Source: Gaiellales bacterium
Lineage (GTDB): Bacteria > Actinomycetota > Thermoleophilia > Gaiellales > JAICJC01
Assembly: GCA_036273515.1 (NCBI GenBank)
Contig: DASUHM010000011.1
Coordinates: forward strand, 1 to 48,238
Reading direction: 5' to 3'
Length of the DNA: 48,238 nucleotides
Shown one piece after another: positions 5,148 to 46,624 of this stretch. The notes under the pieces were generated by a model. The model saw only the letters and a program-made list of their open reading frames with translations, did no database searches and was not told the DNA's origin. A program made the translations under genes and the position numbers. How positions within the stretch are numbered: position 1 is the first letter of the stretch; each line of letters begins with the position of its first letter.

Positions 5148-5153
5148 TAGGCT
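5148..5153 (+). promoter_or_regulatory. -10 element, leaderless start of the fusion gene
   Basis: TAGGCT lies 9 nt before the ATG at 5163, so transcription would begin within a few bases of the start codon. No Shine-Dalgarno sequence is present. The same hexamer recurs before the cupin and pruA genes. Confidence 0.6.
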
Positions 5154-5162
5154 GTCCGCGTC

Positions 5163-8102
5163 ATGGAGACCTCCAACGCCCCTCGCAGCGGCGGGGGTAC
5201 CGACATGGCGATGTTCGCAACGGCCGAGACGCAGCCGCCGGACGTGAGCGCGGAGCAGGCGGCGGACATCGCGGTGCGCGTCTTCGGCGTCACGGGCGCG
5301 ATCACCGAGCTCGGCAGCCAGCAGGACCGCAACTTCCGCATCGACGCCGACGACGGCCGCTACGTCCTGAAGATCGCGAACCCGGCCGTGCCCGAGGTCT
5401 GGCTCGAGAGCCAGAACGCGGCGATGGAGCACCTCGCCCGCGCCGGCCTGCCCGTCCCCCGGCCGCAGCAGTCGCGCGGCGCGGCCACCCTCGAGCATGC
5501 CCGCGTCGGCGACCGCGACCTCGCCGTCCGCCTGCTCACGTTCCTCGACGGCACGCCGCTCTCGAGCTTCGGCTACCTGGCCCCGGCCGTCCGCGCCCGC
5601 ATGGGCGGCCTGGCCGCTTCGGCGTGCCGCGCGTTCGCCGACTTCGACGCGCCGGGGCTGCATCGCCGGCTGGAGTGGGATCTCCGCCACGGCGCGGCCG
5701 TCGTCGCCTCGTTCGCACCGCACGTGGCCGACCCGGTCCGGCGCGAGCGGGTCGTCGCGGTCACGGCCGCCGCCTGCGAGCGGCTGGCGCGGGTGCAGGC
5801 CGACCTGCGGATCGCACCGATCCACGGCGACGTGACCGGCGACAACGTGGTCGGCGCGATCGGGCCCGACCGGCGGGCGTGGCCGTGCGGCCTGATCGAC
5901 TTCGGCGACATGAGCCGCAGCTGGGTCGCCGCGGAGCTCGCGGTCACGTGCGCCGCGCTGCTCCACCAGGTCGGGGGCGATCCGCTCGGCTGGCTTCCCG
6001 CCGTCTCCGCGTTCGACGCGATCGTGCCGCTCGACGGGGCCGACGTCGAGGCGCTGTGGCCGCTCGTCGTCCTGCGCGGCGCGACCCTCGTCGCCGCCGA
6101 CGAGAAGCAGCTCGCCCTCGATCCGCGCAACGGCTATGTCGCGACGAACCGCGACCTCGACTGGGCGATCTTCGAGGCGGCGGCCGCGGTGCCGTGGGCG
6201 CTGGCGGAGGCGGCGATCCGCGACGCCGTCGCGCTGCCCGACCCGGCTCCAGCGCCCGTGCCCAAGTTCACACCGGTAGTCGCGGGGCTCGAGGCGGAGC
6301 AGGTCGGGATCGCCGACCTGTCGGCGACCAGCGAGGCGCTCGACGAGGGGCGGTGGCTCGAGCCCGGCGTCGAGGACGCGGTCCTCGCCGCCGCCGGCCG
6401 GGTTGCGCTCGCCCGCTACGGCGAGCACCGGCTCTCGCGGTCCGGGATCCACGGCGCCGACGAGCCCGCCACCTGCGCCCTGCACGCCGAGGTCGCCGTC
6501 GCCGCCGGCCGCGCCGTGACCGCGCCGGCCGAGGGCGCCGTCGTCGAGGCCGGGTCTGGCCGACTCGTCATCGAGTGCGACGCCGCGACCGTCCTGCTCG
6601 ACGGTGTCGACCCGTCGGTGCGGGCGGGCGATCAGGTCGCCGGGGGCGATCCCGTCGGCGCCGTCGCCGCGTCGGGCCGGCTCCGCGTGCAGCTCTGCGT
6701 CGTCCCAGACGCCGACCCGCCCGCCTTCGCGACACCGTCGGCGGCCGCGGCGTGGCGGCGGGTCTGTCCCGACCCTTCGCCGCTCCTCGGGCTCGACTGC
6801 ACCGCGCCGGACGTCGACGCCGCCCGGGTGTTCGCCCGCCGCGACCATGTGTTCGCGCGCGTCCAGCCGCACTACTACGCCGAGCCGCCCCAGATCGAGC
6901 GGGGCTGGCGCCACCACCTGATCGACACGACCGGGCGGGTCTACCTCGACATGGTGAACAACGTGAGCGTGGTTGGGCACGCCCACCCCGGCGTGGCCCG
7001 GGCGATCTCCCGCCAGGCCCGGTTGCTCAACACCAACTCGCGCTTCAACTACTCGGCGGTGGCCGACTTCTGCGAGCGGCTCGCCGGCCTCGCGCCCGAC
7101 GGCCTCGACACGGTGCTGCTCGTGAACAGCGGCACCGAGGCCACCGACCTCGCGCTGCGGCTGGCCTGGGCGCACACCGGGCGCCAGATCGTCGTCGCGA
7201 TGCGCGAGGCCTACCACGGCTGGTCGATGGCCGCCGACGCCATTTCGACGTCGGTCGCCGACAACCCGCGCGCGCTCGAGACGCGGCCGCCGTGGATCCG
7301 GCTGGTCGACTCGCCCAACCCGTACTCCGGCACCCACCGCGGCCCGGACAGCGCTCCGGCGTACGTCCGCGACGCGCTCGCCGTCATCGCAGGCCTGGCG
7401 GAGCGGGGCGAACGGCCGGCGGCGTTCATCTCCGAGACCGTCCACGGGAACGCGGGCGGCATCCTCCTGCCGCCCGGGTACCTGGAGGCGGTGTACGGGG
7501 CGGTGCGCGCCGCGGGCGGCGTCTGCATCGCCGACGAGATCCAGGTCGGCTACGGCCGGCTCGGCCACCACTTCTGGGGGTTCCTCGAGCAGGGCGTCGC
7601 GCCCGACGTCGTCACCATCGCCAAGGCGCTCGGCAACGGGCATCCGATGGGCGCCGTCATCACCCGCCGCGAGATCGCCGAGTCGTTCGCCGCCGAGGGC
7701 AGCTTCTTCTCCTCGACCGGCGGCAATCCCGTCAGCTGCCGGGCCGGCCTCGCCGTCATCGACGCCATCGAGTCCGAGGGCCTGCAGGAGAACGCGCGCG
7801 TCGTCGGCGAGCACCTGCTCGCCCGCCTGCGCGAGCTGGCCGGGCGGCACGAGCTGATCGGCGCCGTCCACGGCATCGGCCTCTACGCGAGCGTCGAGCT
7901 CGTCCGCAGCCGGGAGACGCGCGAGCCGGCGACCGAGGTGTGCGAGGCGATCTGCGAGCGCATGCGCGAGCGCGGCATCGTCGTCCAGCCGACCGGCGAC
8001 CACCTGAACATGCTGAAGGTGAAGCCGCCGCTCTGCATCACGCGCGAGAGCGCCGACTTCTTCGTCGACCAGCTCGACCTCGTCCTGCGCACCGGCTGGT
8101 GA
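5163..8102 (+). CDS. Fusion: APH-family kinase, inactive M23-like domain, class-III PLP aminotransferase/phospho-lyase-like
   Basis: This 979-residue protein has three parts. Residues ~15-350 are an aminoglycoside-phosphotransferase-like kinase with catalytic loop HGDVTGDN (His221, Asp223, Asn228) and a following IDFGD. Residues ~410-540 resemble an M23/LytM beta-barrel (VTAPAEGAVVEAG), but HxxxD reads HAEVA and HxH is missing, so no zinc site. Residues ~555-979 are a class-III aminotransferase with NSGTEATD, DEIQVGYGRLG and the PLP lysine Lys821 (TIAKALGNG). The closest known relatives of the C-terminal part are ethanolamine-phosphate and 5-phosphohydroxylysine phospho-lyases, whose partner kinase is APH-like. 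A kinase-then-phospho-lyase on an amino alcohol or hydroxylated amino acid is therefore a good guess. An ordinary transaminase remains possible. Substrate unknown. Confidence 0.88.
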   Translation: METSNAPRSGGGTDMAMFATAETQPPDVSAEQAADIAVRVFGVTGAITELGSQQDRNFRIDADDGRYVLKIANPAVPEVWLESQNAAMEHLARAGLPVPRPQQSRGAATLEHARVGDRDLAVRLLTFLDGTPLSSFGYLAPAVRARMGGLAASACRAFADFDAPGLHRRLEWDLRHGAAVVASFAPHVADPVRRERVVAVTAAACERLARVQADLRIAPIHGDVTGDNVVGAIGPDRRAWPCGLIDFGDMSRSWVAAELAVTCAALLHQVGGDPLGWLPAVSAFDAIVPLDGADVEALWPLVVLRGATLVAADEKQLALDPRNGYVATNRDLDWAIFEAAAAVPWALAEAAIRDAVALPDPAPAPVPKFTPVVAGLEAEQVGIADLSATSEALDEGRWLEPGVEDAVLAAAGRVALARYGEHRLSRSGIHGADEPATCALHAEVAVAAGRAVTAPAEGAVVEAGSGRLVIECDAATVLLDGVDPSVRAGDQVAGGDPVGAVAASGRLRVQLCVVPDADPPAFATPSAAAAWRRVCPDPSPLLGLDCTAPDVDAARVFARRDHVFARVQPHYYAEPPQIERGWRHHLIDTTGRVYLDMVNNVSVVGHAHPGVARAISRQARLLNTNSRFNYSAVADFCERLAGLAPDGLDTVLLVNSGTEATDLALRLAWAHTGRQIVVAMREAYHGWSMAADAISTSVADNPRALETRPPWIRLVDSPNPYSGTHRGPDSAPAYVRDALAVIAGLAERGERPAAFISETVHGNAGGILLPPGYLEAVYGAVRAAGGVCIADEIQVGYGRLGHHFWGFLEQGVAPDVVTIAKALGNGHPMGAVITRREIAESFAAEGSFFSSTGGNPVSCRAGLAVIDAIESEGLQENARVVGEHLLARLRELAGRHELIGAVHGIGLYASVELVRSRETREPATEVCEAICERMRERGIVVQPTGDHLNMLKVKPPLCITRESADFFVDQLDLVLRTGW

Positions 8103-8111
8103 GGCGGGGCG

Positions 8112-9537: not shown

Positions 9538-10382
9538 ACCTCCTCCACGACGGAGGCGAAGCCGCGAGCGCGCCCGAGCACGACGGCGCCGCCGGCGACC
9601 GCGGCGATGGCGGCTGCCAGGCCGAGCCGGCGTCCGGCCGACGCCGGCCAGGTCTCGCCGAAGAGGGCCGGCGCGAGCGCCACCGGAATGAGCGTCTGTG
9701 TCGCCAGCACGAGCGGCGCGACCGTCGCCGGGCCGGCGGTCCGCAGCGCGCTCAGCTCGTCGATGCCCCCGGTGGCGGACGCGAGCGCCGTGGCCACGAG
9801 GAACGCGGCGGCCGTGACGGGAGCGCCGGTGCCGGCGTCGGTGAGGAGCTTGGTCGTGATCGCCGAGAGCGCGAACGCGGCGCCGGCCGCCATCGGCAGC
9901 AGCCGCGCGACCCAGACCGACCGCCGGCGCACGAGCGGCGCGGCTCCGGCAATCGCCAGCACAACGATGACCGCCGCCAGCGGCCGTGCGTCGGCGTGCC
10001 CCGCACTTCGAGCCGGGGAGAGCGCCGCGACGCCGCCGATGCCGGCGGCGAGCACGCACGCGGCCGCCGTCTCGCGCCGGCCGAGCCGCTCGTCCGTCAT
10101 CGCCCAGGCCAGCACGACCACCGCGACGACGGTGAACGCGAGCGCCGGCTGCACCACGGTCACGGGCGCGAGCAGGAGCGCCGCCACCTGGAGGCTCCAG
10201 CCGACCAGCGTCACGAACGCGCCGACGAGCCAGCGCGGCGAGCGCGCCAGCCGCACCAGCAGCCGCACCCGCAGGGCGTCGGCGGCCGGCGCCGCGGCCG
10301 CGATCTCGGCCTGCAGCACGGTCCCGAGCCCGAACATCGTCGCCGCGGCGACCGCGAGAGCCGTGCCGGCCAGGGTGTCCAC
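9480..10382 (-). CDS. DMT-superfamily (EamA/NIPA-like) membrane transporter
   Basis: This encodes a 300-residue integral membrane protein with about nine or ten hydrophobic helices, arranged as two repeats of a drug/metabolite transporter. Recognisable segments are FGLGTVLQAEIAA near the N-terminus, LVGWSLQVAALLLAPVTVVQ and the second-half LVLATQTLIPVALAPALFGE. Substrate unknown; relatives carry metabolites, quaternary amines or cations. The GTG at 10382 was chosen because TAGCGT lies 7 nt upstream (leaderless); an in-frame GTG at 10391 is also possible. It is divergent from the MBL hydrolase. Its 3' end runs 58 bp into the tetR remnant. Confidence 0.8.
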   Translation of the reverse strand: MDTLAGTALAVAAATMFGLGTVLQAEIAAAAPAADALRVRLLVRLARSPRWLVGAFVTLVGWSLQVAALLLAPVTVVQPALAFTVVAVVVLAWAMTDERLGRRETAAACVLAAGIGGVAALSPARSAGHADARPLAAVIVVLAIAGAAPLVRRRSVWVARLLPMAAGAAFALSAITTKLLTDAGTGAPVTAAAFLVATALASATGGIDELSALRTAGPATVAPLVLATQTLIPVALAPALFGETWPASAGRRLGLAAAIAAVAGGAVVLGRARGFASVVEEVHDLGASSSEQAASANQRS

Positions 10383-10389
10383 GGCCCGC

Positions 10390-10395
10390 ACGCTA
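10390..10395 (-). promoter_or_regulatory. -10 element, leaderless start of the DMT transporter
   Basis: On the minus strand TAGCGT lies 7 nt before the GTG at 10382. GGGGAG just upstream of it could alternatively serve the GTG at 10391. Confidence 0.5.
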
Positions 10396-10421: not shown

Positions 10422-10427
10422 TACCCT
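10422..10427 (+). promoter_or_regulatory. -10 element, leaderless start of the MBL hydrolase
   Basis: TACCCT lies 9 nt before the GTG at 10437; no Shine-Dalgarno sequence is present. It sits back to back with the DMT promoter, 27 nt away. Confidence 0.55.
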
Positions 10428-10436
10428 CGGGCGGCC

Positions 10437-11315
10437 GTGGACACGTCCAACCTGCGCACCTTCGAGCTGACCGACACGCTGCTCGGCTTCTACGACGGGC
10501 GCATGTCCGGCCCCGAGCTCGGCCCGGACGCGACCTGGGTCGAGGACGGCGCGCTCTCCCTCGGCACCTGCAGCTTCGCCGTCGTCGACGGCGCCGACGC
10601 GCTGGTCTACGACACCCACGTCTCCGTGCCGCACGCCCGCGCGATCCGGGACGAGGTCGAGCGCCGCGGGGCGAGCCGGATCACCGTCGTCCTCAGCCAC
10701 TGGCACCTCGACCACATCGCCGGCACCGAGGCGTTTGCGGACTGCGAGGTGATCGCAAACGCCCTCACCGCCGAGCTCATGACCGAGCACCGGGCCGAGA
10801 TCGAGGAAGGGCGCAAGTCCGGCCCGCCGGCGATCTCGCCGCTCATCCTGCCGACGCGGGCGTTCTCGGGCGCGCTGCATCTCGATGTCGGCAGCGTCGG
10901 CGTCGACCTGCTCGAGTTCGACATCCACAGCCGCGACGCGACCGTCCTCCACATCCCGGCCGAGAGCATCCTGCTCGCCGGCGACACGCTCGAGGACACG
11001 GTCACCTACGTGTCCGAGCCGGACGGGCTCACCCGCCACCTGGAGGAGCTCGAGCGCCTGCGCGCGCTCGGCGCGGCCCGGATCTATCCGAACCACGGCA
11101 GCGTCGAGCGGATCACCGCAGGCGGCTACGACGAGGGACTGATCCTGGCGACCGAGCGTTACGTCGAGGATCTGCTGCGTCACGCCCGCGACCCGCGGCC
11201 GGAGGACGCCGACCTGCGCGCGTTCGTGGCCGGCTCCCTCGACGCGGGCTGGATCGACTACTTCGCGCCGTACCAGCGCGTCCACGAGAGCAACCTCGAC
11301 AGCGTGACGAGCTAG
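10437..11315 (+). CDS. Metallo-beta-lactamase-fold hydrolase
   Basis: This is a 292-residue soluble hydrolase. The binuclear metal site HxHxDH is intact (LSHWHLDH: His88, His90, Asp92, His93). Later ligands are also visible: His in DATVLHIPAE, Asp in LLAGDTLED, His in IYPNHGSVE. The N-terminal beta region and the C-terminal helices fit the general MBL family. No motif points to a beta-lactamase, glyoxalase or RNase Z in particular, and the substrate is unknown. GTG 10437 is the only start compatible with the nearby -10. Its TAG stop shares CTAG (11312-11315) with the convergent MocR gene. Confidence 0.88.
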   Translation: MDTSNLRTFELTDTLLGFYDGRMSGPELGPDATWVEDGALSLGTCSFAVVDGADALVYDTHVSVPHARAIRDEVERRGASRITVVLSHWHLDHIAGTEAFADCEVIANALTAELMTEHRAEIEEGRKSGPPAISPLILPTRAFSGALHLDVGSVGVDLLEFDIHSRDATVLHIPAESILLAGDTLEDTVTYVSEPDGLTRHLEELERLRALGAARIYPNHGSVERITAGGYDEGLILATERYVEDLLRHARDPRPEDADLRAFVAGSLDAGWIDYFAPYQRVHESNLDSVTS

Positions 11316-12752: not shown

Positions 12753-12758
12753 TACCTT
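12753..12758 (+). promoter_or_regulatory. -10 element, leaderless start of the MFS exporter
   Basis: TACCTT lies 7 nt before the ATG at 12766, with no Shine-Dalgarno sequence. The candidate MocR operator would occupy its -35 region. Confidence 0.6.
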
Positions 12759-12765
12759 GTGACGC

Positions 12766-14163
12766 ATGCACTCGATCACCTCCACACCCGGGGCGCTTCG
12801 CCTGTTTGCCGTCTCCGTCCTCGCCCGGCTGCCGCTCCCGACCTTCAGCATCGGCCTGCTGGTGCACACCCGCCATCTCACCGGCTCGTTCGCGGCCGCC
12901 GGGCTGGTCGCCGGCATCTACGGCGCGGCGCTCGGCATCGGCGGCCCGTTCCTCGGCCGGCTGGTCGACCGCTGCGGCCAGACCCTGGTGCTGATCGGCA
13001 GCGCCGTGGCGTCGGCGGCGCTCCTGGGCGTCATCGCGCTCATGCCGGCCGGCGCGCCTGTCCCGGCGCTCGTCGCCCTGGCATTCGGCATCGGCCTGGC
13101 GTCGCCGCCGCTCGGCGCCTGCCTGCGCACCGCGCTGCCGCGGATCCTGCCCGACCAGGAGGCCGTGCGTGCCTCCTACACCCTCGACGCAACCGCCGCC
13201 GAGCTGACCTGGATCCTGGGCCCGCCGCTCGTGCTCGCCCTCGGCGCCATCAGCTCGACCGGCATCGCCCTGGCCGTCTCGGGCGCCGTCCTCCTGGTCG
13301 CGACCACCGCATTCGCGGCCGAGCCTGCCTCACGCGGCCGGCGCCCGTCCGGCGACGGCAATCCCGGCCGCGGCGGCTGCCTGCGCTCCCCGGCGATGCG
13401 CACCCTCGTGCTCGTGTTGATCGCCGTCGGCGTCCTCTTCGGCGCCGTCGAGGTGGGCGTCGCGGCCGCCACGGCGAGGCTCGGTAGCACCGCGTCTGCC
13501 GGCCCGCTGCTCGGCCTGTGGGGCGCCGGATCGCTGATCGGCGGCATGGCTGCCGTCCGCCTCGGGGCGCGCCTGCGCGGCGCGTCCGGCCTCGCCCTCG
13601 TGCTCGCCGCGCTGGCCTGTGGTCACCTGCTGCTCGTCGCGGCCGCCGGCAGCGTGCTCGCGATGGCGGCCGTGCTCGTGCTCGGTGGCACGGCGATCGC
13701 GCCGACCTACGCGGTCGTCTACGCCATGGTCGACGATGCGGCGCCGGCCGGCACCGAGACCGAGGCGTTCGCCTGGCTCGGCACCGCCGTCGCGATCGGG
13801 GCGGCCGCCGGCTCGGCGGTCGCCGGGGCGGCCTCCGAGCACGCCGGGCCGCAGGCGGCGTTCGTCCTCGCGGCGGCCGCCGGAGCCGCTTCCGTGGCGC
13901 TGGTCCTCGCTCGTGGGCGCCTCCTGCCGCCCGCACTATCTCACCCTGTGGTCGAGGGTGATGGTTCTCGGAGCACCGATACCGGCTGGGGCGGCTCGAT
14001 GGCCACCCGCGGCAGTCGCCGATCCAGCCAGGCCGGGAAGACCCACGTGGCGCCGCCCAGGATCTGGAGGACGGCGGGCAGCAGGATCATGCGGATGACG
14101 ATCGCGTCCAGAAATACCGCGCTCGCCAGACTCACGCCGAACAGCTCCAGCCCGCGGTTGTGA
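12766..14163 (+). CDS. MFS transporter, probably an exporter regulated by the adjacent MocR protein
   Basis: This encodes 465 residues, of which about 1-390 form a typical twelve-helix major facilitator. The loop between helices 2 and 3 reads GGPFLGRLVDRCGQ, matching the MFS A-motif (G-x-L-x-D-R). The second half has AVVYAMVDDAAPAGTETEAF. Substrate unknown; divergence from a MocR regulator suggests an amino acid, amine or vitamin-related compound. The last ~75 residues are Arg/Ser-rich, not membrane-like, and are read antisense to the MMPL gene (13941-14163). The natural end is probably near 13940 and may have been lost through stop-codon change or frameshift. Confidence 0.8.
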   Translation: MHSITSTPGALRLFAVSVLARLPLPTFSIGLLVHTRHLTGSFAAAGLVAGIYGAALGIGGPFLGRLVDRCGQTLVLIGSAVASAALLGVIALMPAGAPVPALVALAFGIGLASPPLGACLRTALPRILPDQEAVRASYTLDATAAELTWILGPPLVLALGAISSTGIALAVSGAVLLVATTAFAAEPASRGRRPSGDGNPGRGGCLRSPAMRTLVLVLIAVGVLFGAVEVGVAAATARLGSTASAGPLLGLWGAGSLIGGMAAVRLGARLRGASGLALVLAALACGHLLLVAAAGSVLAMAAVLVLGGTAIAPTYAVVYAMVDDAAPAGTETEAFAWLGTAVAIGAAAGSAVAGAASEHAGPQAAFVLAAAAGAASVALVLARGRLLPPALSHPVVEGDGSRSTDTGWGGSMATRGSRRSSQAGKTHVAPPRIWRTAGSRIMRMTIASRNTALARLTPNSSSPRL

Positions 14164-20399: not shown

Positions 20400-20405
20400 T
20401 ACCGT
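20400..20405 (+). promoter_or_regulatory. -10 element, leaderless start of the 61-aa membrane protein
   Basis: TACCGT lies 6 nt before the ATG at 20412; no Shine-Dalgarno sequence. Confidence 0.5.
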
Positions 20406-20411
20406 GGCGCC

Positions 20412-20597
20412 ATGGTCGCAATCCTCACCCGTCTCGCCGTAGGATTCGCGCGCTGGTTGCTCGTGCTCGTCACCCTTGCGGTCGCGCTCGTCGCCGGCGG
20501 GGCTCTGGTCGTTCCGCTCGCGATCCTCGCCCCGCCGCTGGCGCTCATCCTCGCAGGGCTGCTGGTGCTCTACGTGCTCGGCGCAACTTCCGGCTAG
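20412..20597 (+). CDS. Small membrane protein, 61 aa
   Basis: Almost the whole protein is hydrophobic: two predicted membrane helices (about 8-32 and 34-56) joined at a proline (VPLAILAPP), with a short arginine-containing N-terminus (TRLAVGFARW). No family recognised. Support for it being real comes from its own leaderless-type -10, the strongly membrane-like composition, and a stop codon that shares CTAG with the convergent oxidoreductase, a pattern repeated in the window. Confidence 0.6.
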   Translation: MVAILTRLAVGFARWLLVLVTLAVALVAGGALVVPLAILAPPLALILAGLLVLYVLGATSG

Positions 20598-21587: not shown

Positions 21588-21593
21588 TACCTT
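21588..21593 (+). promoter_or_regulatory. -10 element supporting GTG 21603
   Basis: TACCTT lies 9 nt before the GTG at 21603. No other in-frame ATG/GTG/TTG lies between the divergent oxidoreductase gene and this point. Confidence 0.45.
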
Positions 21594-21602
21594 CCCGCGA
21601 CG

Positions 21603-22388
21603 GTGTTCCTGTTTCCCTGGTACACGGCGCTGTGCCTCGCCCAGGGCGCGCTCGTGGCGATCCCGGCGGTCGGCCGCGACGCGAGCCGGCGCCACGCCGT
21701 TCTCGGCCTGGCCGGGCCGGCGGCGGCGATGGTCATCGGCGTCGGCACCGTGCGGGTCGCCGGCGGCTCCGGCGCCGATCTGCTGGCCTGGTTGGGGACG
21801 TTCGCGACCCCGATCCTGGCCGGCGTGCTGGGGTGGGCCGCCCGCTGGCGATGGCCGTACCTGACGGCCGTCGCCGCGGCGGTGCTGTACGTGATCGCGT
21901 GGCAGGCCGGCGGCCATCTGGCCGAGGCGGCCGGGGCGGCGCTGATCGGCGGGGCCTGCCTCGCCATCGCCGCGATCGTCGGTCCGATCACGCCGGCCCG
22001 CTACCTCGCCGTCGGCCTGGTCATCCTGATTGCCGTCGACGTCTACCTGGTATGGGGGAACCGCCAGGTCGAGCGCACCACATCGGCGCTCCAGCAGGCG
22101 ACGCTGCCGCAGGTGGGCGTGTCGTCGCACCAGAGCAAGCCGCTGCCCGCCCTCCAGCAGGTCGACCTGGGCAACTCGAGCATGGGCTGGCTCGACTTCC
22201 TCGCGCCCGCGCTGCTCGGTGCCGTCGTCGGCCGCCGCACTCGCCCCCGCGTGCGGGCCGCGATCGCGGTCGCCGTGGCGGCGCTCGCCTGGGGCTTCGT
22301 GCTCGAGCTGACCTCGCCCATCCCCGCGACGGTGCCGATGCTTGCGGGCCTGGCGGTGACCTGGCCGGCGTGGTGGCGCGGGACCTAG
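21603..22388 (+). CDS. Polytopic membrane protein of unknown function
   Basis: This 261-residue protein has about seven predicted membrane helices, starting within the first residues (VFLFPWYTALCLAQGALVAI). Helices 1-5 lie within about 1-160. A polar external loop of about 45 residues follows (GNRQVERTTSALQQATLPQV and on), then two more helices to the end. No family or catalytic motif recognised. GTG 21603 was chosen because of a TACCTT 9 nt upstream and because the frame lacks other starts after the oxidoreductase gene. It ends in a CTAG shared with the convergent small membrane gene. Confidence 0.65.
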   Translation: MFLFPWYTALCLAQGALVAIPAVGRDASRRHAVLGLAGPAAAMVIGVGTVRVAGGSGADLLAWLGTFATPILAGVLGWAARWRWPYLTAVAAAVLYVIAWQAGGHLAEAAGAALIGGACLAIAAIVGPITPARYLAVGLVILIAVDVYLVWGNRQVERTTSALQQATLPQVGVSSHQSKPLPALQQVDLGNSSMGWLDFLAPALLGAVVGRRTRPRVRAAIAVAVAALAWGFVLELTSPIPATVPMLAGLAVTWPAWWRGT

Positions 22389-23397: not shown

Positions 23398-23403
23398 TAT
23401 CTT
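23398..23403 (+). promoter_or_regulatory. -10 element of the merR-exporter operon
   Basis: TATCTT lies 8 nt before GTG 23412. A perfect CGTTAACG palindrome (23405-23412) sits between it and the start and could be part of an operator; GTTAAC is rare in DNA this GC-rich. Confidence 0.5.
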
Positions 23404-23411
23404 CCGTTAAC

Positions 23412-23894
23412 GTGAATATGACTCCGAACGAGAAGACCGCCGCCGAGGAGGGCACCGAGGCACCCTTCCGCATCGGGGAGCTCGCCCGCCGGGTCGGCGC
23501 CACGCCGCGCACCGTGCGCTACTACGAAGAGCTCGGCCTGCTGCCTGACCGCGGCCGCTCCGAGGGCGCCCACCGCCTGTACGACGAGGAGGACGAGGCC
23601 CGGCTCGCCGACCTGATCCGCGTGCGCGACCTGCTCGGCCTGACCCTGGCCGAGCTGCGCGACTGGATGGATGCCGAGGCCGCCCGCGCCGTCCTGCGCG
23701 AGCGCTGGCACGGCCCGGACGCGCTCGCGTCCGAAGACCGCGCCCAGATCCTGGGCGAGTCGCTGCGCCACGTCGAGACGCAGGTCTCGCTGGTGCGCGC
23801 CCGCCGGGCGGCGCTCGAGCAGCTCGAGGACGAGCTCCTCGAGAAGCGGCGCCGGATCCGGATGCTGCGCGACGAGTTCGAGGAGCAGGTGTGA
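23412..23894 (+). CDS. MerR-family transcriptional regulator
   Basis: This 160-residue regulator has the MerR winged helix in FRIGELARRVGATPRTVRYY, followed by EELGLLPDRGRSEGAHRLYD, and a C-terminal dimerisation coiled coil of about 60 residues. There is no cysteine for metal sensing, so it belongs with the drug- or small-molecule-sensing members. It is coupled by a GTGA overlap (23891-23894) to a DHA2 exporter, its obvious target. GTG 23412 or ATG 23418 could be the start; the former fits a leaderless transcript. Confidence 0.92.
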   Translation: MNMTPNEKTAAEEGTEAPFRIGELARRVGATPRTVRYYEELGLLPDRGRSEGAHRLYDEEDEARLADLIRVRDLLGLTLAELRDWMDAEAARAVLRERWHGPDALASEDRAQILGESLRHVETQVSLVRARRAALEQLEDELLEKRRRIRMLRDEFEEQV

Positions 23895-25648: not shown

Positions 25649-25654
25649 TATCAT
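25649..25654 (+). promoter_or_regulatory. -10 element, leaderless start of nrnA
   Basis: TATCAT lies 6 nt before GTG 25661. GAAGGAG (25637-25643) is too far upstream for ribosome binding at that start. Confidence 0.5.
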
Positions 25655-25660
25655 GGGGGT

Positions 25661-27967: not shown

Positions 27968-27974
27968 GCCCGCG

Positions 27975-27980
27975 ATGCTA
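27975..27980 (-). promoter_or_regulatory. -10 element, leaderless start of the LCAT-like gene
   Basis: On the minus strand TAGCAT lies 7 nt before GTG 27967, with no Shine-Dalgarno sequence. Confidence 0.55.
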
Positions 27981-34489: not shown

Positions 34490-35661
34490 TGGACTTCGCG
34501 CTCTCGCCCGAGCTGATCGATCTCCGCACCCGGGTGCGGGCGCTCGTCGACGACCACCTGATCCACTATGAGACGGAGGCCGAGGAGCACCACGGCCGGC
34601 TTTCCGCAGAGTCGCACGCGCGCATCAAGCAGGCAGTGCTCGACTCGGGGCTCGCCGCCAACAACATCCCGAAGGAGTTCGGCGGCGGGGGGTTCAACCT
34701 GACCGAGCAGATCGTCACCCACGAGCAGCTCGGCCGGCTGACGAACTGCCTGTGGGTGCTCGTGTGGAGTCCGTCGAACGTGCTCGTCCACGGCACGCCC
34801 GAGCAGATCGAGCGCTATCTCCTGCCCGACGTGCGCGGCGACCACCGCCACGCCTACGCGATCACCGAGGAGGCGGCCGGCTCCGACCCGCGCGCCATCG
34901 CCTCCGAGGCCGTCTGGAACGGCAGCCACTACGAGCTCTCCGGCACCAAGTGGTTCGTCACCGACGGCGACGTCGCGAGCTACTTCATCGTGCTCGCGTG
35001 GGCGGTCGACGGCCACGACCGCCGCCCCGCGCTCTTCCTCGTCGACAAGGACGCGCCCGGCGTCGAGATGACCGACGATCCCGACTTCTCGCACAACTTT
35101 CCCTACCGGCATCCCGAGTTCACGTTCACGAAGACGCCGGTGCCGCGCGAGAGCATCCTCGGCGACCTCGGCCGCGGCTTCGAGCTGACCGGCGAGTGGT
35201 TCGTCGAGGAGCGCGTCCACATCGCCGCCCGCTGCATCGGCGCCTGCGATCGCCTGATCGAGCTCGGCACCGCCTGGGCGCTCGAGCGGGAGCAGTTCGG
35301 CTCGCGCATCTTCGACCACCAGGCCGTCAGCTTCGCCCTGGCCGACTGCGCCGCCGAGGTGACCGCCGCCCGCCTGCTCACCTACTACGTCGGCTGGCTG
35401 GCCGACTCGGGTGCCGATCGCAAGCTCGTCCACCACAAGGCGTCGATGGCGAAGCTGGTCGCGTCCGAGACCGCCGGGCGGGTGGCCGACCGGGTCGTGC
35501 AGATCTTCGGCGGCCGCGGCTACATGCGCTCGAACCCGGCCGAGCGGCTGTGGCGCGAGCTGCGCGTCGACCGCATCTGGGAGGGGACGAGCGAGATCCA
35601 GCGGCTCATCGTCAGCCGCGGGCTCGAGCGGCGCGGCCCGGCGACCCTGCTGTCGCTCTAG
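34489..35661 (+). CDS. Acyl-CoA dehydrogenase
   Basis: This is a 390-residue FAD enzyme that introduces a 2,3 double bond into an acyl-CoA. N-terminal helical domain 1-115; FAD/substrate segments AYAITEEAAGSDPRAI and YELSGTKWFVTDGD; C-terminal domain with HKASMAKLVASETAGRVADR, QIFGGRGYM and RIWEGTSEIQRLIV. Glu365 in the last motif occupies the catalytic-base position of medium-chain dehydrogenases. Substrate chain length is unknown. Its ATG overlaps the hutF stop, which suggests a shared transcript, although no direct biochemical link to histidine breakdown is evident. Its TAG stop is part of the next promoter. Confidence 0.94.
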   Translation: MDFALSPELIDLRTRVRALVDDHLIHYETEAEEHHGRLSAESHARIKQAVLDSGLAANNIPKEFGGGGFNLTEQIVTHEQLGRLTNCLWVLVWSPSNVLVHGTPEQIERYLLPDVRGDHRHAYAITEEAAGSDPRAIASEAVWNGSHYELSGTKWFVTDGDVASYFIVLAWAVDGHDRRPALFLVDKDAPGVEMTDDPDFSHNFPYRHPEFTFTKTPVPRESILGDLGRGFELTGEWFVEERVHIAARCIGACDRLIELGTAWALEREQFGSRIFDHQAVSFALADCAAEVTAARLLTYYVGWLADSGADRKLVHHKASMAKLVASETAGRVADRVVQIFGGRGYMRSNPAERLWRELRVDRIWEGTSEIQRLIVSRGLERRGPATLLSL

Positions 35662-35664
35662 GCT
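35659..35664 (+). promoter_or_regulatory. -10 element overlapping a stop codon, leaderless start of the cupin gene
   Basis: TAGGCT lies 6 nt before ATG 35671. Its first three bases are the stop codon of the acyl-CoA dehydrogenase. GGAG directly abuts the ATG and is too close to act as a Shine-Dalgarno. Confidence 0.5.
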
Positions 35665-35670
35665 ACGGAG

Positions 35671-36150
35671 ATGGCCGACTCCGAGCCGCTCGACGCCGGC
35701 ACGGCCGCCTGGCACCGGCGCCTGCACCACACGCCGCACGACGGCCTGACCGAGGACACCGCCCAGACGCCTGGCATGCGCCGCTACGAGGCGATCTCGG
35801 GCAAGCGCAACGGCTCGCGCAAGATCTGGATGGGCAAGAACCACGTCGCGCCGAACATGCGCTCGGCCGACCACCACCACGGCGAGGCCGAGACCGGCAT
35901 CTACGTCGTCTCCGGCCACCCGGTGTTCGTGTTCCTGGAGGACGGCCAGGAGCGCCACATCGAGACCGGCCCGGGCGACTACGTCTACGTGCCGCCGTGG
36001 GTGCCGCACCGCGAGGAGAACCCCTCGCTCGACGAGGAGGCGGTCGTCGTCCTCGCCCGCAGCACGCAGGAGGGGATCGTGGTCAACCTGCCCAGCCTGC
36101 GCGCGGCCGTCCCGGAGCTCGACCGGATCATCGCGGGGGAGGAGATCTAA
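35671..36150 (+). CDS. Cupin-domain protein
   Basis: This is a 159-residue single-domain cupin. Cupin motif 1 is ADHHHGEAETGIYVVSG, with two histidines and a glutamate placed as metal ligands; motif 2 is PGDYVYVPPWVPHREENP, with the final histidine. This makes a small metal-binding beta-barrel of enzyme or sensor type; dioxygenase, isomerase or binding functions are all possible. The N-terminal 60 residues include KIWMGKNHVAPNM. It has its own leaderless-type promoter and shares a CTAA stop overlap (36147-36150) with the convergent membrane gene. Confidence 0.85.
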   Translation: MADSEPLDAGTAAWHRRLHHTPHDGLTEDTAQTPGMRRYEAISGKRNGSRKIWMGKNHVAPNMRSADHHHGEAETGIYVVSGHPVFVFLEDGQERHIETGPGDYVYVPPWVPHREENPSLDEEAVVVLARSTQEGIVVNLPSLRAAVPELDRIIAGEEI

Positions 36151-37358: not shown

Positions 37359-37817
37359 TCATTCCCGGGAAGCCGCCCAGGCACGCACGCCTGCGAGCTG
37401 CCAGGGCAGCGGCCGGCACGTCGGCCAGCACGCCGATGCCGCCTCGAGCGCCTCGTCGATGGTCGTCCCGGAACGGCTCGCGAGGATGGCGACGGCGACC
37501 GCCGCGGAGCGCTCCCGGCCGCCGCGGCAGTGGATGTATGCGGTCTCCTGGCCGGCCGCCTCGACGGCGCGGTCGAGCACGTCCGGCGGGATCGTCGCGC
37601 CGTCGGGCACCGGCAGCCGGTGCTCGGTCATGTCGGCCCGCCGGAACGCCGCCTCGACTGCGGCCCGCTCGCCGTCCCAGTACTCATGGTCCTCGCACAG
37701 GTTGATGACGGTGCGGACGCCCTCGGCATGGAGCGCCTCGACGTGGGCGGTGGCATGCGGCATCCGCCCGGCCAGAAGGCCGGATCCGAGCGACGAATAG
37801 CGCAGCGGCGCGGTCAC
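37359..37817 (-). CDS. Dual-specificity-type protein phosphatase
   Basis: This 152-residue cysteine phosphatase has the active-site loop HCRGGRERSA, matching HCxxGxxR(S/T). The upstream segment GVRTVINLCEDHEYWDG and the general-acid region VPDGATIPPD are as in small DSP/tyrosine phosphatases. The likely target is phosphotyrosine, phosphoserine/threonine or a phospholipid; this cannot be decided from sequence. GTG 37817 follows TACCCT by 6 nt (leaderless). Confidence 0.86.
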   Translation of the reverse strand: MTAPLRYSSLGSGLLAGRMPHATAHVEALHAEGVRTVINLCEDHEYWDGERAAVEAAFRRADMTEHRLPVPDGATIPPDVLDRAVEAAGQETAYIHCRGGRERSAAVAVAILASRSGTTIDEALEAASACWPTCRPLPWQLAGVRAWAASRE

Positions 37818-37823
37818 CGCGCC

Positions 37824-37829
37824 AGGGTA
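37824..37829 (-). promoter_or_regulatory. -10 element, leaderless start of the phosphatase gene
   Basis: On the minus strand TACCCT lies 6 nt before GTG 37817, with no Shine-Dalgarno sequence. Confidence 0.5.
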
Positions 37830-38052: not shown

Positions 38053-38081
38053 AACGGTTCTCCGAACGGTTCACCTACACT
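38053..38081 (+). promoter_or_regulatory. Promoter of the IMPase gene with direct repeat
   Basis: CTACACT (-10 TACACT, 38076-38081) lies 8 nt before GTG 38090. AACGGTTC occurs twice just upstream (38053-38060 and 38065-38072), in the -35 region, and may bind a regulator. Confidence 0.5.
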
Positions 38082-38089
38082 CCCGCGCC

Positions 38090-38881
38090 GTGTCCACCGA
38101 CGGCCTGCTCGAGCTCGCGCTGGGCGCCGCGCGCGACGCCGGCGAGCTCCTGCTCGAGCGGTTCGGCGGGCCGGCCAGCGGCGTCGAGTCCAAGAGCAGC
38201 ACGACCGACATGGTCTCGGACGCCGATCGAGCCGCCGAGCGGTTGCTGCTCGAGCGCATCAGGAGCGCGCGGCCGGAAGACGGCGTGCTCGGCGAGGAGG
38301 GCGCGGACGTCGACGGCACGTCCGGCCTCACCTGGGTCGTCGACCCGCTCGACGGCACGACCAATTACCTCTTCGACTATCCGGTCTGGTCGGTCTCGGT
38401 CGCCTGCCAGGACGCCGACGGCGGAGTGGTCGGCGTCGTCCACGACCCGACCCGCGGCGAGACCTTCGCCGCCGCGCGTGGCGCCGGCGCGACGCTGAAC
38501 GGGCGTCCCGTGCGCACCCGCGCGCCGCGCGGGCTCGACCGGGCGCTCGTCGGCACGGGCTTCGGCTACGACCCCGGTGAGCGCGAATTCCAGGGCCGGG
38601 TGCTCGCCTACATGCTCCCGCGGGTACGCGACGCCCGCCGCGGCGGGTCGGCGGCGCTCGACCTGGCCTGGGTCGCGTGCGGGCGGCTGGACGGCTTCTA
38701 CGAGTGGGGCATCAAGGAGTGGGACCGGGCCGCCGGGATGCTGCTCGTCGCCGAGGCGGGTGGGGAGGTCGCGGTCTTCGACCCCGGCGGCGGCCTCCCG
38801 GAGTGCGTGGTGGCGGCGGCGGCCGACCAGCACGAGCCGCTGCGCGAGCTCGTGGTCGCCGCGATCGCGCACGCCGGCTAG
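38090..38881 (+). CDS. Inositol monophosphatase-family phosphatase
   Basis: This 263-residue magnesium-dependent, lithium-sensitive-type phosphatase has metal ligands in LGEEG (Glu69/Glu70) and WVVDPLDGTTNY (Asp85, Asp88). The C-terminal signature EWGIKEWDRAAGMLLVAEAG supplies the third Asp. Substrates in the family include inositol-1-phosphate, histidinol phosphate, fructose bisphosphate and pAp. The KEWDRAAG form is common in actinobacterial IMPase and histidinol-phosphatase paralogues and does not distinguish them. GTG 38090 is fixed by the nearby -10; an upstream ATG at 38018 would put the promoter inside the gene. The stop shares CTAG with the convergent lipoprotein gene. Confidence 0.9.
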   Translation: MSTDGLLELALGAARDAGELLLERFGGPASGVESKSSTTDMVSDADRAAERLLLERIRSARPEDGVLGEEGADVDGTSGLTWVVDPLDGTTNYLFDYPVWSVSVACQDADGGVVGVVHDPTRGETFAAARGAGATLNGRPVRTRAPRGLDRALVGTGFGYDPGEREFQGRVLAYMLPRVRDARRGGSAALDLAWVACGRLDGFYEWGIKEWDRAAGMLLVAEAGGEVAVFDPGGGLPECVVAAAADQHEPLRELVVAAIAHAG

Positions 38882-43757: not shown

Positions 43758-44501
43758 CTAGACCGGCGCCGACTCGGCCTCGGCCTGGCGCTCGGCGATC
43801 AGCCGGTCGACGCCGGCGCGGTCGCCGGCGCGCAGGAGCGCGACCGGGTCGGGGTCGCCGTTCACGATCGCCTCGAAGAAGTCGCGGCGGGCGGCGAAGG
43901 TCGGAAGCGTCGACTTGGCCCAGCCGCGCACGTCGTTCAGGATCACGGCGAGGTCGGCGTAATCGGCGCCGAAGAGCTCGGCGATCTCGCGCTTCATCCG
44001 CTTTGCCAGGGCCGGGCTGGCGCCGGCGGTCGAGATGGCGATCGCGATCGGGCCGGTGCGCACGATCGCAGGCAGGATGAAGCTGCAGAGCGGCGGCACG
44101 TCGACGACGTTGCAGAGCATCGCGCGCCGCTCGGCCTCGTCGAAGACGGCGATGTTCGTGTCGGTGTCGGACGTCGCCGCGATGGCCAGGAAGTGGCCCT
44201 CGAGGTCGCCCGGGCGGAACTCGCGCTCGGTCAGGTCGACGTCGCCCGAGCCGGCCAGCTCGCGGACGGCGGGCGAGACGTCGCGCGCGATCACGTGCAC
44301 GTTCGCCCCGGAGGCGAGCAGCCCCTCGATCTTCTCGAGGCCGACGTCGCCGGCCCCGACGACGAGGCAGCGACGCCCCGTCAGCTTGAGGCAGGCGATG
44401 TAGAACGTCGTCCCCAGCATGTCGGCGACGCAGCGCTGGTCGCAGCGCTCGAGCCGGTGCTGGCAGACGCACGGCGCGCCGGTGAAAGCCTGGGCGGGCA
44501 T
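43758..44501 (-). CDS. Precorrin-2 dehydrogenase / sirohydrochlorin ferrochelatase (CysG N-terminal/Met8-like)
   Basis: This 247-residue protein converts precorrin-2 to sirohydrochlorin, and possibly inserts iron, for siroheme of sulfite/nitrite reductases. The NAD-binding fold carries VVGAGDVGLEKIEGLL (GAGDVG 49-54). The dimerisation/active region contains NVVDVPPLCSFILPAIV and IAISTAGASPALAKRMK, as in CysG and Met8. Preceding the normal start (FYIACLKL) is an N-terminal extension with CVCQHRLERCDQRC (Cys11, 13, 20, 24), unusual for the family and possibly a metal site. ATG 44501 is supported by TACCAT 7 nt upstream; an internal ATG at 44417 would remove the extension. Confidence 0.9.
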   Translation of the reverse strand: MPAQAFTGAPCVCQHRLERCDQRCVADMLGTTFYIACLKLTGRRCLVVGAGDVGLEKIEGLLASGANVHVIARDVSPAVRELAGSGDVDLTEREFRPGDLEGHFLAIAATSDTDTNIAVFDEAERRAMLCNVVDVPPLCSFILPAIVRTGPIAIAISTAGASPALAKRMKREIAELFGADYADLAVILNDVRGWAKSTLPTFAARRDFFEAIVNGDPDPVALLRAGDRAGVDRLIAERQAEAESAPV

Positions 44502-44508
44502 CCATCGG

Positions 44509-44514
44509 ATGGTA
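44509..44514 (-). promoter_or_regulatory. -10 element, leaderless start of the siroheme gene
   Basis: On the minus strand TACCAT lies 7 nt before ATG 44501. Its presence argues that the cysteine-containing N-terminus is translated. Confidence 0.5.
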
Positions 44515-44545: not shown

Positions 44546-44551
44546 TAAGAT
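44546..44551 (+). promoter_or_regulatory. -10 element, leaderless start of the CBS gene
   Basis: TAAGAT, close to the TATAAT consensus, lies 6 nt before GTG 44558; no Shine-Dalgarno sequence. Confidence 0.6.
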
Positions 44552-44557
44552 CGGCGG

Positions 44558-44959
44558 GTGCCGTACAAGCGATCCGAGGAGGAGTTCGTCTCCGCCGTCA
44601 TGAGCGCCAACCTGCTCACGGCCGCGGCCGGCGACGCGCTCACCGACGCCGCCCACCGGATGGCGGAGCGCCGCGTCGGCGCGATCCTCGTCACCGAGGG
44701 CACGCTCCTCACGGGGATCATGACCGAGCGCGACGTCCTGCGCGCGGTCGGCTCTGGCGACATCGGCGGCACCGTCGGCGACTGGATGACTCGGCATCCA
44801 GACACCGCTCTGCCGTCCGCCACGATCGGCGAGGCGGCGGCGATGATGCTGCACGGCGGCTACCGCCACGTGCCGATCGTCGACGGCGATCACGCGGTCG
44901 GCATCGTCTCGATCCGCGACCTGATCCGCCTGCCGAGCGAGACCCCGAGCGGCGTCTAG
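44558..44959 (+). CDS. Stand-alone CBS-domain pair (Bateman module)
   Basis: This 133-residue protein consists of two CBS repeats: about 13-70 (SAVMSANLLTAAAGDALTDA ... GIMTERDVLRAV) and about 75-130 (DWMTRHPDTALPSATIGEAA ... GIVSIRDLIRLP). Each ends in the (S/T)xRD motif that binds adenosine nucleotides such as AMP, ATP or S-adenosylmethionine. Such proteins regulate partner enzymes or channels by sensing adenylate charge. No partner is obvious; the convergent ABC exporter and divergent siroheme gene are only neighbours. Shares a CTAG stop overlap with the ABC permease. Confidence 0.9.
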   Translation: MPYKRSEEEFVSAVMSANLLTAAAGDALTDAAHRMAERRVGAILVTEGTLLTGIMTERDVLRAVGSGDIGGTVGDWMTRHPDTALPSATIGEAAAMMLHGGYRHVPIVDGDHAVGIVSIRDLIRLPSETPSGV

Positions 44960-45690
44960 TCCACGTCGCGGCGGGCGGCCATGACCGCGCCGGCGATGCA
45001 GATCACGACCGTCCAGAACACGAGCGTGGCGCCGCCCACGCCCGGGTCGAGCAGGTGCGCGTCGGTCAGCCCCATCAGGCCGTTCTGGGCCTGATCGGGC
45101 GTCCACCGGCCCACGGACGGCACCAGGTGGAAGAGCAGGTTCTGGATGACGAAGCCCCACGCCAGGAGGCCGATGATGGCGCCGACCTGGTTTCGCACGA
45201 TCATCCCGAGTCCGACCCCGATCCCGCCCCAGAGCGCCGTCCCGATCAGCGTCCCGATGGTGATCAGGGTGTAGTCATGATGGCTGAGCGCGACCGAGAT
45301 GCTGCGCTGGTTCAGGATCACCCCGCCGATCCCGACCGAGAGGATCTCGCCGATGAACGCGAACACGAACCCTGCTGTCAGGGCCGCGACCACCTTGGCG
45401 ACGAGCACCAGCGAGCGCTTCGGCGTGAACAGGTAGGTCGGCCGGATCGTCCCGAAGCGGTACTCGCCGGTCACGAGCATGATGCCCGCGAGCGCCGCGA
45501 AGAGGCCGGCGAAGCTGCCGATCGAAAAGAGGTTTCGCTGCTGCTCGCGCCCGCTCATCTCGCCGACCGACGTCAGGAGCGCGGTCAGGATGACGAAGAG
45601 CAGGATGATCGCGATCATCCCCAGCACGAGGCCGAGCGTCGTGCGGGTCGAGCGCACCTTGATGATCTCGGCGCGGATCTGCGGGATCAT
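44956..45690 (-). CDS. ABC-2 type transporter permease
   Basis: This is a 244-residue membrane subunit with six predicted helices. The N-terminal segment IPQIRAEIIKVRSTRTTLGL and FGTIRPTYLFTPKRSLVLVAK are typical of the ABC-2 permeases that act with a CcmA-like ATPase (bacitracin/lantibiotic-resistance and similar exporters). Its ATG overlaps the ATPase stop as ATGA (45687-45690), which ensures 1:1 production. Substrate unknown. Confidence 0.9.
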   Translation of the reverse strand: MIPQIRAEIIKVRSTRTTLGLVLGMIAIILLFVILTALLTSVGEMSGREQQRNLFSIGSFAGLFAALAGIMLVTGEYRFGTIRPTYLFTPKRSLVLVAKVVAALTAGFVFAFIGEILSVGIGGVILNQRSISVALSHHDYTLITIGTLIGTALWGGIGVGLGMIVRNQVGAIIGLLAWGFVIQNLLFHLVPSVGRWTPDQAQNGLMGLTDAHLLDPGVGGATLVFWTVVICIAGAVMAARRDVD

Positions 45691-46580
45691 TCCGGCTTCT
45701 CCGACGTCAGCTCGAGGAAGACCTCCTCGAGCGAGGACTGCTCCACGCGCAGCTCGTGCAGCACGATGCCGGACGCAGCCGCGATCTCGCCGACGCGCTC
45801 GCTGGTCGTCCCCTGGGCGTAGAGCGCGCCGGATGCCTCGGTCGAGGCGATGCCGTCGCGCTCGAGCGCCTCGCGCAGCTTGCCGGCCTCCGGGCTGCGG
45901 ACGCGCACCGCACCGCCAATCCCGGCCGTCAGCTCGTCCAGGCGCGACTCGCGCACGAGCTGGCCCCGGCTGATGATCAGCACGTGGTCGACGGTCTGGG
46001 CGACCTCGGCCAGGACGTGGCTCGACACGAGCACGGTGTGGCCGCTGCCCGCGAACGAGCGCAGGAAGTCGCGCAGCCAGCGCACGCCCTCGGGGTCGAG
46101 GCCGTTCGCAGGCTCGTCGAGGACGAGCAGCTCGGGATCGCCAAGCAGCGCTCCGGCCAGGCCGAGCCGCTGGCGCATGCCGAGCGAGTAGCCCTTGACG
46201 CGGCGGTTGGCGGCGCCGTCGAGCTCGACCGTCCGAAGCACCTCGTCGACCCGCGAGTCGGGGATGCCGGCCGCCGCCGAGAGCGTGCGCAGGTGATTGC
46301 GGCCCGACCGGCCCGGATGGAAGTCGGTCGCCTCGAGCACGGCCCCGATGCGCAGCGCCGGCTGGTCGATCTCGGCATAGGGCCGCTCGAAGATGAGCGC
46401 CTTGCCCTGGGTCGGGCGGGCCAGGCCGAGCAGCATCCGCAGGGTCGTCGTCTTGCCGGCCCCGTTCGGCCCGAGAAAGCCGGTGATCGTGCCCGCCTGG
46501 AGCACGAACGAGAGGTCGTCGACCGCGGTGAGGTTCCCGAATCGCTTCGTCAGCGACTCGGCTCGGACGACCGGTGGCAT
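45687..46580 (-). CDS. ABC transporter ATP-binding protein (CcmA/BcrA-like)
   Basis: This 297-residue ATPase subunit has Walker A GFLGPNGAGKTTTL, signature GYSLGMRQRLGLAGAL, Walker B LLVLDEPANGLDPEG and switch histidine LVSSHVLAEVAQ. The last ~80 residues (ASTEASGALYAQGTTSERVG ... SSLEEVFLELT) form the usual regulatory tail of BcrA-type exporters. Together with the coupled permease it makes an exporter, perhaps of a peptide or lipid. ATG 46580 is preceded by TAGCGT at 6 nt (leaderless). Confidence 0.93.
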   Translation of the reverse strand: MPPVVRAESLTKRFGNLTAVDDLSFVLQAGTITGFLGPNGAGKTTTLRMLLGLARPTQGKALIFERPYAEIDQPALRIGAVLEATDFHPGRSGRNHLRTLSAAAGIPDSRVDEVLRTVELDGAANRRVKGYSLGMRQRLGLAGALLGDPELLVLDEPANGLDPEGVRWLRDFLRSFAGSGHTVLVSSHVLAEVAQTVDHVLIISRGQLVRESRLDELTAGIGGAVRVRSPEAGKLREALERDGIASTEASGALYAQGTTSERVGEIAAASGIVLHELRVEQSSLEEVFLELTSEKPE

Positions 46581-46586
46581 GCGCTT

Positions 46587-46592
46587 ACGCTA
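46587..46592 (-). promoter_or_regulatory. -10 element, leaderless start of the ABC operon
   Basis: On the minus strand TAGCGT lies 6 nt before ATG 46580. The divergent pruA -10 is only 26 nt away. Confidence 0.55.
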
Positions 46593-46618
46593 GCCCGCCG
46601 ATCGGCGCGCGGGCGCGA

Positions 46619-46624
46619 TAGGCT
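46619..46624 (+). promoter_or_regulatory. -10 element, leaderless start of pruA
   Basis: TAGGCT lies 6 nt before ATG 46631; no Shine-Dalgarno sequence. Confidence 0.6.

What the first reader, a model, noticed from the sequence alone, without database searches (positions are those of the whole stretch)
5148..46624. Widespread leaderless transcripts: TANNNT placed 6-9 nt before start codons
At least sixteen first genes have a -10-like TANNNT hexamer ending 6-9 nt before ATG/GTG and no Shine-Dalgarno. Plus strand, hexamer start then start codon: 5148/5163, 10422/10437, 12753/12766, 20400/20412, 21588/21603, 23398/23412, 25649/25661, 35659/35671, 38076/38090, 44546/44558, 46619/46631. Minus strand starts: 10382, 27967, 37817, 44501, 46580. 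A -10 at this distance puts the transcription start on or beside the start codon. Genes inside operons in the same window have good Shine-Dalgarno sequences or stop-start overlaps, so two translation modes coexist. Leaderless genes are known to be common in mycobacteria and streptomycetes; this would extend the habit to a deeper lineage and gives a simple rule for start-site annotation.
Basis: partly seen in the sequence, partly recalled or inferred. Interest (0 to 1): 0.72.

Follow-up and report, generated by a model that had tools for sequence, protein, structure and literature searches.

The report
Widespread leaderless genes in uncultured actinobacterium
In this uncultured bacterium about a quarter of the sampled genes carry a promoter box so close to the start codon that the message probably begins at the start codon itself; this is a known habit of its phylum, here unusually clear, with a twist in which the stop codon of one gene seems to form part of the promoter of the next.

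Summary
All 16 hexamers lie where stated, 6-9 nt before an ATG/GTG. In 791 kb of the same genome, TANNNT at that distance precedes 72 of 235 divergent gene starts, against 5.8 in upstream windows and 4.4 in shuffles. Around divergent genes, TANNNT-N6-9-RTG falls in the gene's frame 106 times and in the other frames 3 and 1 times. Counts jump from 2 at gap 5 to 42 and 47 at gaps 6 and 7. In a same-genus relative 6 of 6 boxes are kept. Leaderless initiation is by far the best reading, at roughly 24% of sampled starts. The kind is known: Zheng 2011 reports this signal in 86 of 89 actinobacterial genomes. Two corrections: internal genes are not exempt (21 of 263), and some boxes are built on the TAG stop codon of the preceding gene. 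In the order, 21 of 35 TAG stops 9-12 nt before the next start have T at +3, against 13 of 89 at gaps of 3-8 or 13-54 nt. That is the most novel element. No transcription-start data were available.

The parts
5148..5165 (+). TAGGCT, gap 9, ATG of APH/aminotransferase fusion gene
   Evidence: called start is 5205, in frame
10422..10439 (+). TACCCT, gap 9, GTG of metallo-beta-lactamase-fold gene
10380..10395 (-). TAGCGT, gap 7, GTG of EamA-like gene (Pfam match below its cut-off)
   Evidence: called start is 10391, in frame
12753..12768 (+). TACCTT, gap 7, ATG of MFS transporter gene
20400..20414 (+). TACCGT, gap 6, ATG of 61-aa hydrophobic ORF (doubtful gene)
21588..21605 (+). TACCTT, gap 9, GTG of uncharacterised gene (no Pfam match)
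23398..23414 (+). TATCTT, gap 8, GTG of MerR-family regulator gene
   Evidence: called start is 23418, in frame
25649..25663 (+). TATCAT, gap 6, GTG of DHH/DHHA1 gene (tandem, 33 nt gap)
27965..27980 (-). TAGCAT, gap 7, GTG of LCAT-like gene with signal-peptide-like N-terminus
   Evidence: called start is 27862, in frame
35659..35673 (+). TAGGCT, gap 6, ATG of cupin gene; the TAG is the stop codon of the preceding gene (34489-35661)
37815..37829 (-). TACCCT, gap 6, GTG of DSP-PTPase-like gene
   Evidence: hexamer kept in L023; called start is 37763, in frame
38076..38092 (+). TACACT, gap 8, GTG of inositol-monophosphatase-family gene
   Evidence: leaderless start in 7 of 9 homologue loci examined
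44499..44514 (-). TACCAT, gap 7, ATG of sirohaem-synthase-like gene
   Evidence: hexamer kept in L023 (gap 6 there)
44546..44560 (+). TAAGAT, gap 6, GTG of CBS-domain gene
   Evidence: leaderless start in 5 of 8 homologue loci examined
46578..46592 (-). TAGCGT, gap 6, ATG of ABC transporter ATPase gene
   Evidence: T, A, T kept in L023
46619..46633 (+). TAGGCT, gap 6, ATG of aldehyde dehydrogenase gene
   Evidence: hexamer kept in L023 (gap 7 there)

Best explanation
TANNNT is the -10 element of a housekeeping-sigma promoter that needs no recognisable -35. RNA polymerase starts about 6-9 nt downstream of it, on the A/G of the start codon or within about 3 nt of it, so the mRNA has no leader or almost none. 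The ribosome then begins at the 5'-terminal AUG/GUG without a Shine-Dalgarno contact. Other genes, mostly internal ones, use Shine-Dalgarno. Shown here: position, reading frame, conservation between species, intact anti-SD in relatives. Inferred: which sigma factor, the transcription start itself, and the leaderless mode of translation.
For: Position: over the 743 starts used in the own sample, TANNNT counts at gaps 3 to 10 are 2, 2, 2, 42, 47, 19, 22, 6, the lower edge a promoter must respect if the start codon is to be in the transcript. Enrichment: divergent 72 of 235 vs 5.8 control, shuffles mean 4.4; G003 28 of 80 vs 1.2; G009 26 of 67 vs 2.2. Frame: 106:3:1 own divergent, 33:0:2 G003, 29:1:0 G009; E. 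coli control 4:2:2 and 1 of 25 vs 2.4. Divergent more than internal: 72 of 235 vs 21 of 263, p=8e-11. SD tetramer at 3 of 72 divergent starts with the box vs 38 of 163 without, p=1.6e-4, partly a matter of room. Synteny with same-genus L023: 6 of 6 boxes kept, T, A, T identical at 18 of 18 positions (the middle NNN at 17 of 18), upstream positions at 143 of 195, p=0.008 for T, A, T against upstream. Homologues: 14 of 19 loci have an in-frame start with the box, while 31 other in-frame start candidates in the same 19 loci have none. M. tuberculosis TSS mapping shows the same motif and no -35 (passages of PMC3898074).
Against: No TSS, ribosome-profiling or proteomic data. Starts come from an ad hoc gene caller not checked against annotated starts. 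Gaps 8-9 allow a leader of 1-3 nt. The SD exclusion is partly geometric (the box fills much of the stretch scanned), and among internal starts it is not significant (4 of 21 vs 94 of 242, p=0.10). 5 of 19 homologue loci lack the arrangement. Three of six class genomes show no divergent start with the box: G022 0 of 5, G023 0 of 15, G035 0 of 9. The Rhodococcus plasmid, from a better known actinobacterium, shows only 3 of 34 (vs 0.4).
Confidence: 0.93

Rival explanations
1. The hexamer is a translation signal in a longer leader (an A/T-rich ribosome-binding element, or an S1 site) and not a promoter.
For: A fixed distance to the start codon is also what a translation signal would show; A/T-rich biases at about -20 to -10 in some phyla have been discussed as either Pribnow boxes or S1 sites (passages of PMC5397173).
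Against: A translation signal should serve internal genes as well, yet the box marks 72 of 235 divergent and only 21 of 263 internal starts. The form TANNNT is the mapped -10 form of M. tuberculosis. In L194 and L195 (CBS homologues) a TANNNT lies further upstream and an SD precedes the start.
Confidence: 0.05
2. Chance or composition: A/T-richer intergenic DNA gives TANNNT by accident.
For: Background at divergent starts is about 2% per start in a window of this width (5.8 of 235).
Against: Dinucleotide shuffles, upstream windows, other reading frames and E. coli do not reproduce it.
Confidence: 0.01
3. Promoters are real but many transcripts carry very short leaders of 1-5 nt, so 'leaderless' is only approximately true. 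This is a refinement of the best explanation and not exclusive with it.
For: Gaps 8 and 9 make up 35 of 109 non-internal cases in the own sample.
Against: Gaps 6 and 7 are the modes; spacing from -10 to TSS varies naturally by 1-2 nt (recalled).
Confidence: 0.3

Closest known systems
TA-led (leaderless) genes of Actinobacteria, Zheng et al. 2011 (PMC3160421; abstract and passages seen)
   Same: TANNNT core about 10 bp upstream of the start, mixed with SD-led genes; 86 of 89 actinobacterial genomes, average 19.2% (2.3-29.8) of genes.
   Different: This is an uncultured lineage; the 2011 text names no Rubrobacter, Conexibacter or Acidimicrobium. Estimate here about 24% of sampled starts. Boxes on stop codons did not appear in the passages I saw.
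Leaderless transcriptome of Mycobacterium tuberculosis, Cortes et al. 2013 (PMC3898074; passages seen)
   Same: TANNNT -10 and no conserved -35; TSS overlaps the start codon for 26% of genes with a primary TSS.
   Different: There measured, here inferred from sequence.
Stop codon overlapping the Shine-Dalgarno of the next gene (PMC2784483; passages seen)
   Same: Stop codon reused as part of a downstream initiation signal, with short spacers.
   Different: There the signal is a ribosome-binding site, mainly at 5-8 nt spacers; here a promoter box at 9-12 nt spacers.

Membership tests
Actinobacterial leaderless (TA-led) genes | TANNNT core at a fixed short distance from the start codon, above background | tested here: met
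Actinobacterial leaderless (TA-led) genes | Shine-Dalgarno absent at these starts | tested here: met
   SD tetramer at 0 of the 16 window starts and at 3 of 72 divergent starts with the box against 38 of 163 without; partly built in because the box occupies the stretch
Actinobacterial leaderless (TA-led) genes | Concentrated on first or single genes | tested here: met
   72 of 235 divergent vs 21 of 263 internal; internal genes not exempt
Actinobacterial leaderless (TA-led) genes | SD mode coexists (intact anti-SD) | tested here: met
   CCTCC tail in the 9 of 9 full-length 16S genes of the class looked at, two from the order; no 16S found in the own genome
Actinobacterial leaderless (TA-led) genes | Transcription start on or beside the start codon | not testable with these tools
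   needs TSS mapping
Mycobacterial -10-only promoter | No conserved -35 | tested here: met
   own set of 109: no position from -36 to -1 above 0.12 bit; the smaller G009 set (39) shows 0.13-0.16 bit at -33 to -31

The most novel reading that the evidence does not exclude
[quoted passage not shown] In the same spirit, divergent leaderless pairs share intergenic regions as short as 19 bp, with two overlapping -10 boxes.
Probability: 0.5. Interest if true: 0.55.

Novelty: new member of a known kind. Interest (0 to 1): 0.4.

Why it matters
Where the pattern occurs it picks the start codon well (around divergent genes 106 in-frame sites against 3 and 1 in the wrong frames), although it covers only 104 of 235 divergent genes. 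It shows strong dual-mode initiation in an uncultured actinobacterial order and points to a compact architecture in which stop codon and promoter are fused, so that gene pairs scored as operons by distance may be independently transcribed.

Tried and rejected
A -35 motif was sought and not found in the own set. A preferred start-to-start distance in divergent pairs was sought: both-leaderless pairs are closer together (median 50 bp, 21 pairs, against 144 bp, 80 pairs with none), with no single preferred value. A general shift of stop usage to TAG at 9-12 nt gaps was considered and set aside, because 3-8 nt gaps are TAG-rich too; only the T at +3 is specific. Lineage: the only named same-genus record seen is G002 = JAICJC01, titled 'Thermoleophilia bacterium'; I did not verify the class. 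The first homologue script read only one strand and showed false misses; one search replaces it. Not examined: the weaker loci L040-L049, L200, L204 and L205.

Papers: PMC3160421 abstract and passages; passages only of PMC9581028, PMC5397173, PMC10783764, PMC2784483, PMC3898074 and PMC6728331; all others search listings only. Searches (leaderless with Acidimicrobiia, Thermoleophilia, Rubrobacter) listed 1, 1 and 5 papers; none has a title or listed abstract start on leaderless genes in those groups (PMC10783764 is an anti-SD survey). Searches listed no paper whose title or listed abstract start concerns a -10 box on a stop codon; the passages seen of PMC6728331 do not either. Subscription papers are mostly not held.

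Full report
What was checked. The window is contig C11 of an uncultured genome of 4.07 Mb in 98 contigs, G+C about 70-75%. The class label is the depositor's and was not tested.

The strings. All 16 hexamers exist as described. I wrote a gene caller that uses codon use and start-codon type only, so that the hexamer cannot influence the start. It was not checked against annotated starts. Of the 16 sites, 14 are at or in frame with a called start, 27967 is in frame further upstream and opens with a signal-peptide-like sequence, and 20412 opens a 61-aa hydrophobic ORF that remains doubtful. Pfam gives a match (E up to 0.001) for 14 of the 16 genes, 13 of them over the curated cut-off; none for 20412 and 21603, and the match at 10382 is below its cut-off. 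The first version of the caller missed 12766, whose 3' end overlaps the convergent MMPL gene by more than that version allowed; the overlap rule was then relaxed for convergent pairs. One search used the older rule. 6 of the 16 starts follow a gene on the same strand, so 'first genes' is only partly right.

Is it more than chance? In 791 kb of the own genome 822 genes were called and 743 starts used; the 79 dropped were weak, open-ended, near a stretch end or without a neighbour. TANNNT at gap 6-9 precedes 72 of 235 divergent starts, 16 of 151 tandem starts with gaps of 60 or more, 21 of 94 with gaps of 20-59, and 21 of 263 internal starts (gap under 20 or overlap). Upstream windows of the same width give 5.8, 3.0, 2.0 and 0.6; shuffles average 4.4, 1.5, 0.9 and 1.7. 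Without the window: 64 of 214, 16 of 142, 20 of 90, 20 of 257. Two relatives agree: G003 28 of 80 and G009 26 of 67 divergent starts.

Frame test. All TANNNT-N6-9-(A/G)TG sites from -120 to +60 of the called start were sorted by frame relative to the gene. Own genome, divergent: 106, 3, 1; internal: 23, 0, 1. Counting genes with an in-frame site: 104 of 235, 30 of 151, 27 of 94 and 23 of 263, together 184 of 743; the other two frames together hold 13 sites, so about 6.5 are expected by chance. This puts leaderless starts near 24%, within the published actinobacterial range (2.3-29.8%).

Spacing and -35. Over all starts used the counts for gaps 3 to 10 are 2, 2, 2, 42, 47, 19, 22, 6. There is no aligned -35 signal in the own set; G009 shows a weak one. 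M. tuberculosis promoters mapped by RNA-seq have the same TANNNT and no conserved -35.

Shine-Dalgarno. An SD tetramer at -16..-4 is found at 3 of 72 divergent starts with the box and 38 of 163 without (p=1.6e-4), and at 4 of 21 against 94 of 242 internal starts (p=0.10). The box itself occupies much of that stretch, so this contrast is weaker evidence than the frame test.

Conservation. L023 covers about window 37.7-47.5 kb. Its 6 leaderless genes in common with the window all keep the box; T, A, T are identical at 18 of 18 positions, the middle NNN at 17 of 18, upstream positions at 143 of 195, discriminator positions at 30 of 39. T, A, T against upstream gives p=0.008. In two of the six the gap changed, between 6 and 7. 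Among homologue loci in the order, 7 of 9 for the 38090 gene, 5 of 8 for the 44558 gene and 2 of 2 for the 35671 gene have an in-frame start with the box; 31 other in-frame start candidates in the same 19 loci have none. In several the protein start has moved and the box has moved with it. In L194 and L195 the 44558 homologue has an SD before its start and a TANNNT further upstream, so the two modes differ between sister genera.

How far it reaches. Divergent starts with the box: six relatives within the order 35 of 105 (control 3.6); six class genomes 12 of 73 (control 1.4), three of them at zero; 14 phylum genomes 20 of 163 (control 5.8). Frames are 14:1:1 in the class and 33:5:6 in the phylum set. 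Controls: E. coli 1 of 25 divergent (control 2.4) and frames 4:2:2; Rhodococcus plasmid 3 of 34 (0.4) and 7:0:2; D. radiodurans plasmid 1 of 7 divergent and 3 of 10 tandem. Samples outside the order are small, so differences between lineages are only indicative.

Stop codon as promoter. The hexamer at 35659 begins with the TAG stop of the gene before it. In the first own sample 7 of 8 TAG stops lying 9-12 nt before the next start had T at +3. In stretches fetched afterwards: 10 of 20 against 5 of 38 at other gaps, one-sided p=0.004. In the seven order genomes sampled, first sample included: 21 of 35 against 13 of 89, one-sided p=1e-6; at +1, +2, +4, +5, +6 only 2, 1, 6, 2, 3 of 35; TAA 1 of 4; TGA 0 of 16. 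SD is present in 2 of the 21 and 5 of the other 14. Class and phylum samples do not show it (0 of 2 and 1 of 7), too few to conclude. The analogous reuse of stop codons inside SD sequences is in print. Conservation of such a junction was not tested; in the two relatives with a close cupin homologue (L202, L203) the box before the start is not a TAGNNT at that place.

Novelty. The core finding is known for the phylum: Zheng 2011 defines TA-led genes by this core and reports them in 86 of 89 Actinobacteria, and GeneMarkS-2 is cited as predicting leaderless transcription in 21.6% of bacterial species. I therefore file it as a new member of a known kind, with the stop-codon boxes as the part worth a follow-up.

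Noticed in passing
[quoted passage not shown]
   Followed up: partly
L017 11308-11326 (own genome): Divergent pair only 19 bp apart; both strands have TANNNT at gap 7 and the two boxes overlap, like a symmetric bidirectional -10. L020 2291-2317 (27 bp) is similar.
   Followed up: partly
window 10382/10437, 44501/44558, 46580/46631: Three divergent pairs 50-56 bp apart in which both genes are predicted leaderless.
   Followed up: yes
L194, L195 (CBS homologues in G003, G004): The homologue has an SD-led start with TANNNT further upstream: initiation mode differs between sister genera.
   Followed up: partly
window 5163-8102: 979-aa protein with an APH-type phosphotransferase domain and a class-III aminotransferase domain.
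   Followed up: no
window 13941-14163: Convergent MFS (12766-14163) and MMPL (13941-16067) genes overlap at their 3' ends by 223 bp, both with strong Pfam matches.
   Followed up: no
window 2119-2469: RNase P RNA class A, 239 bits.
   Followed up: no
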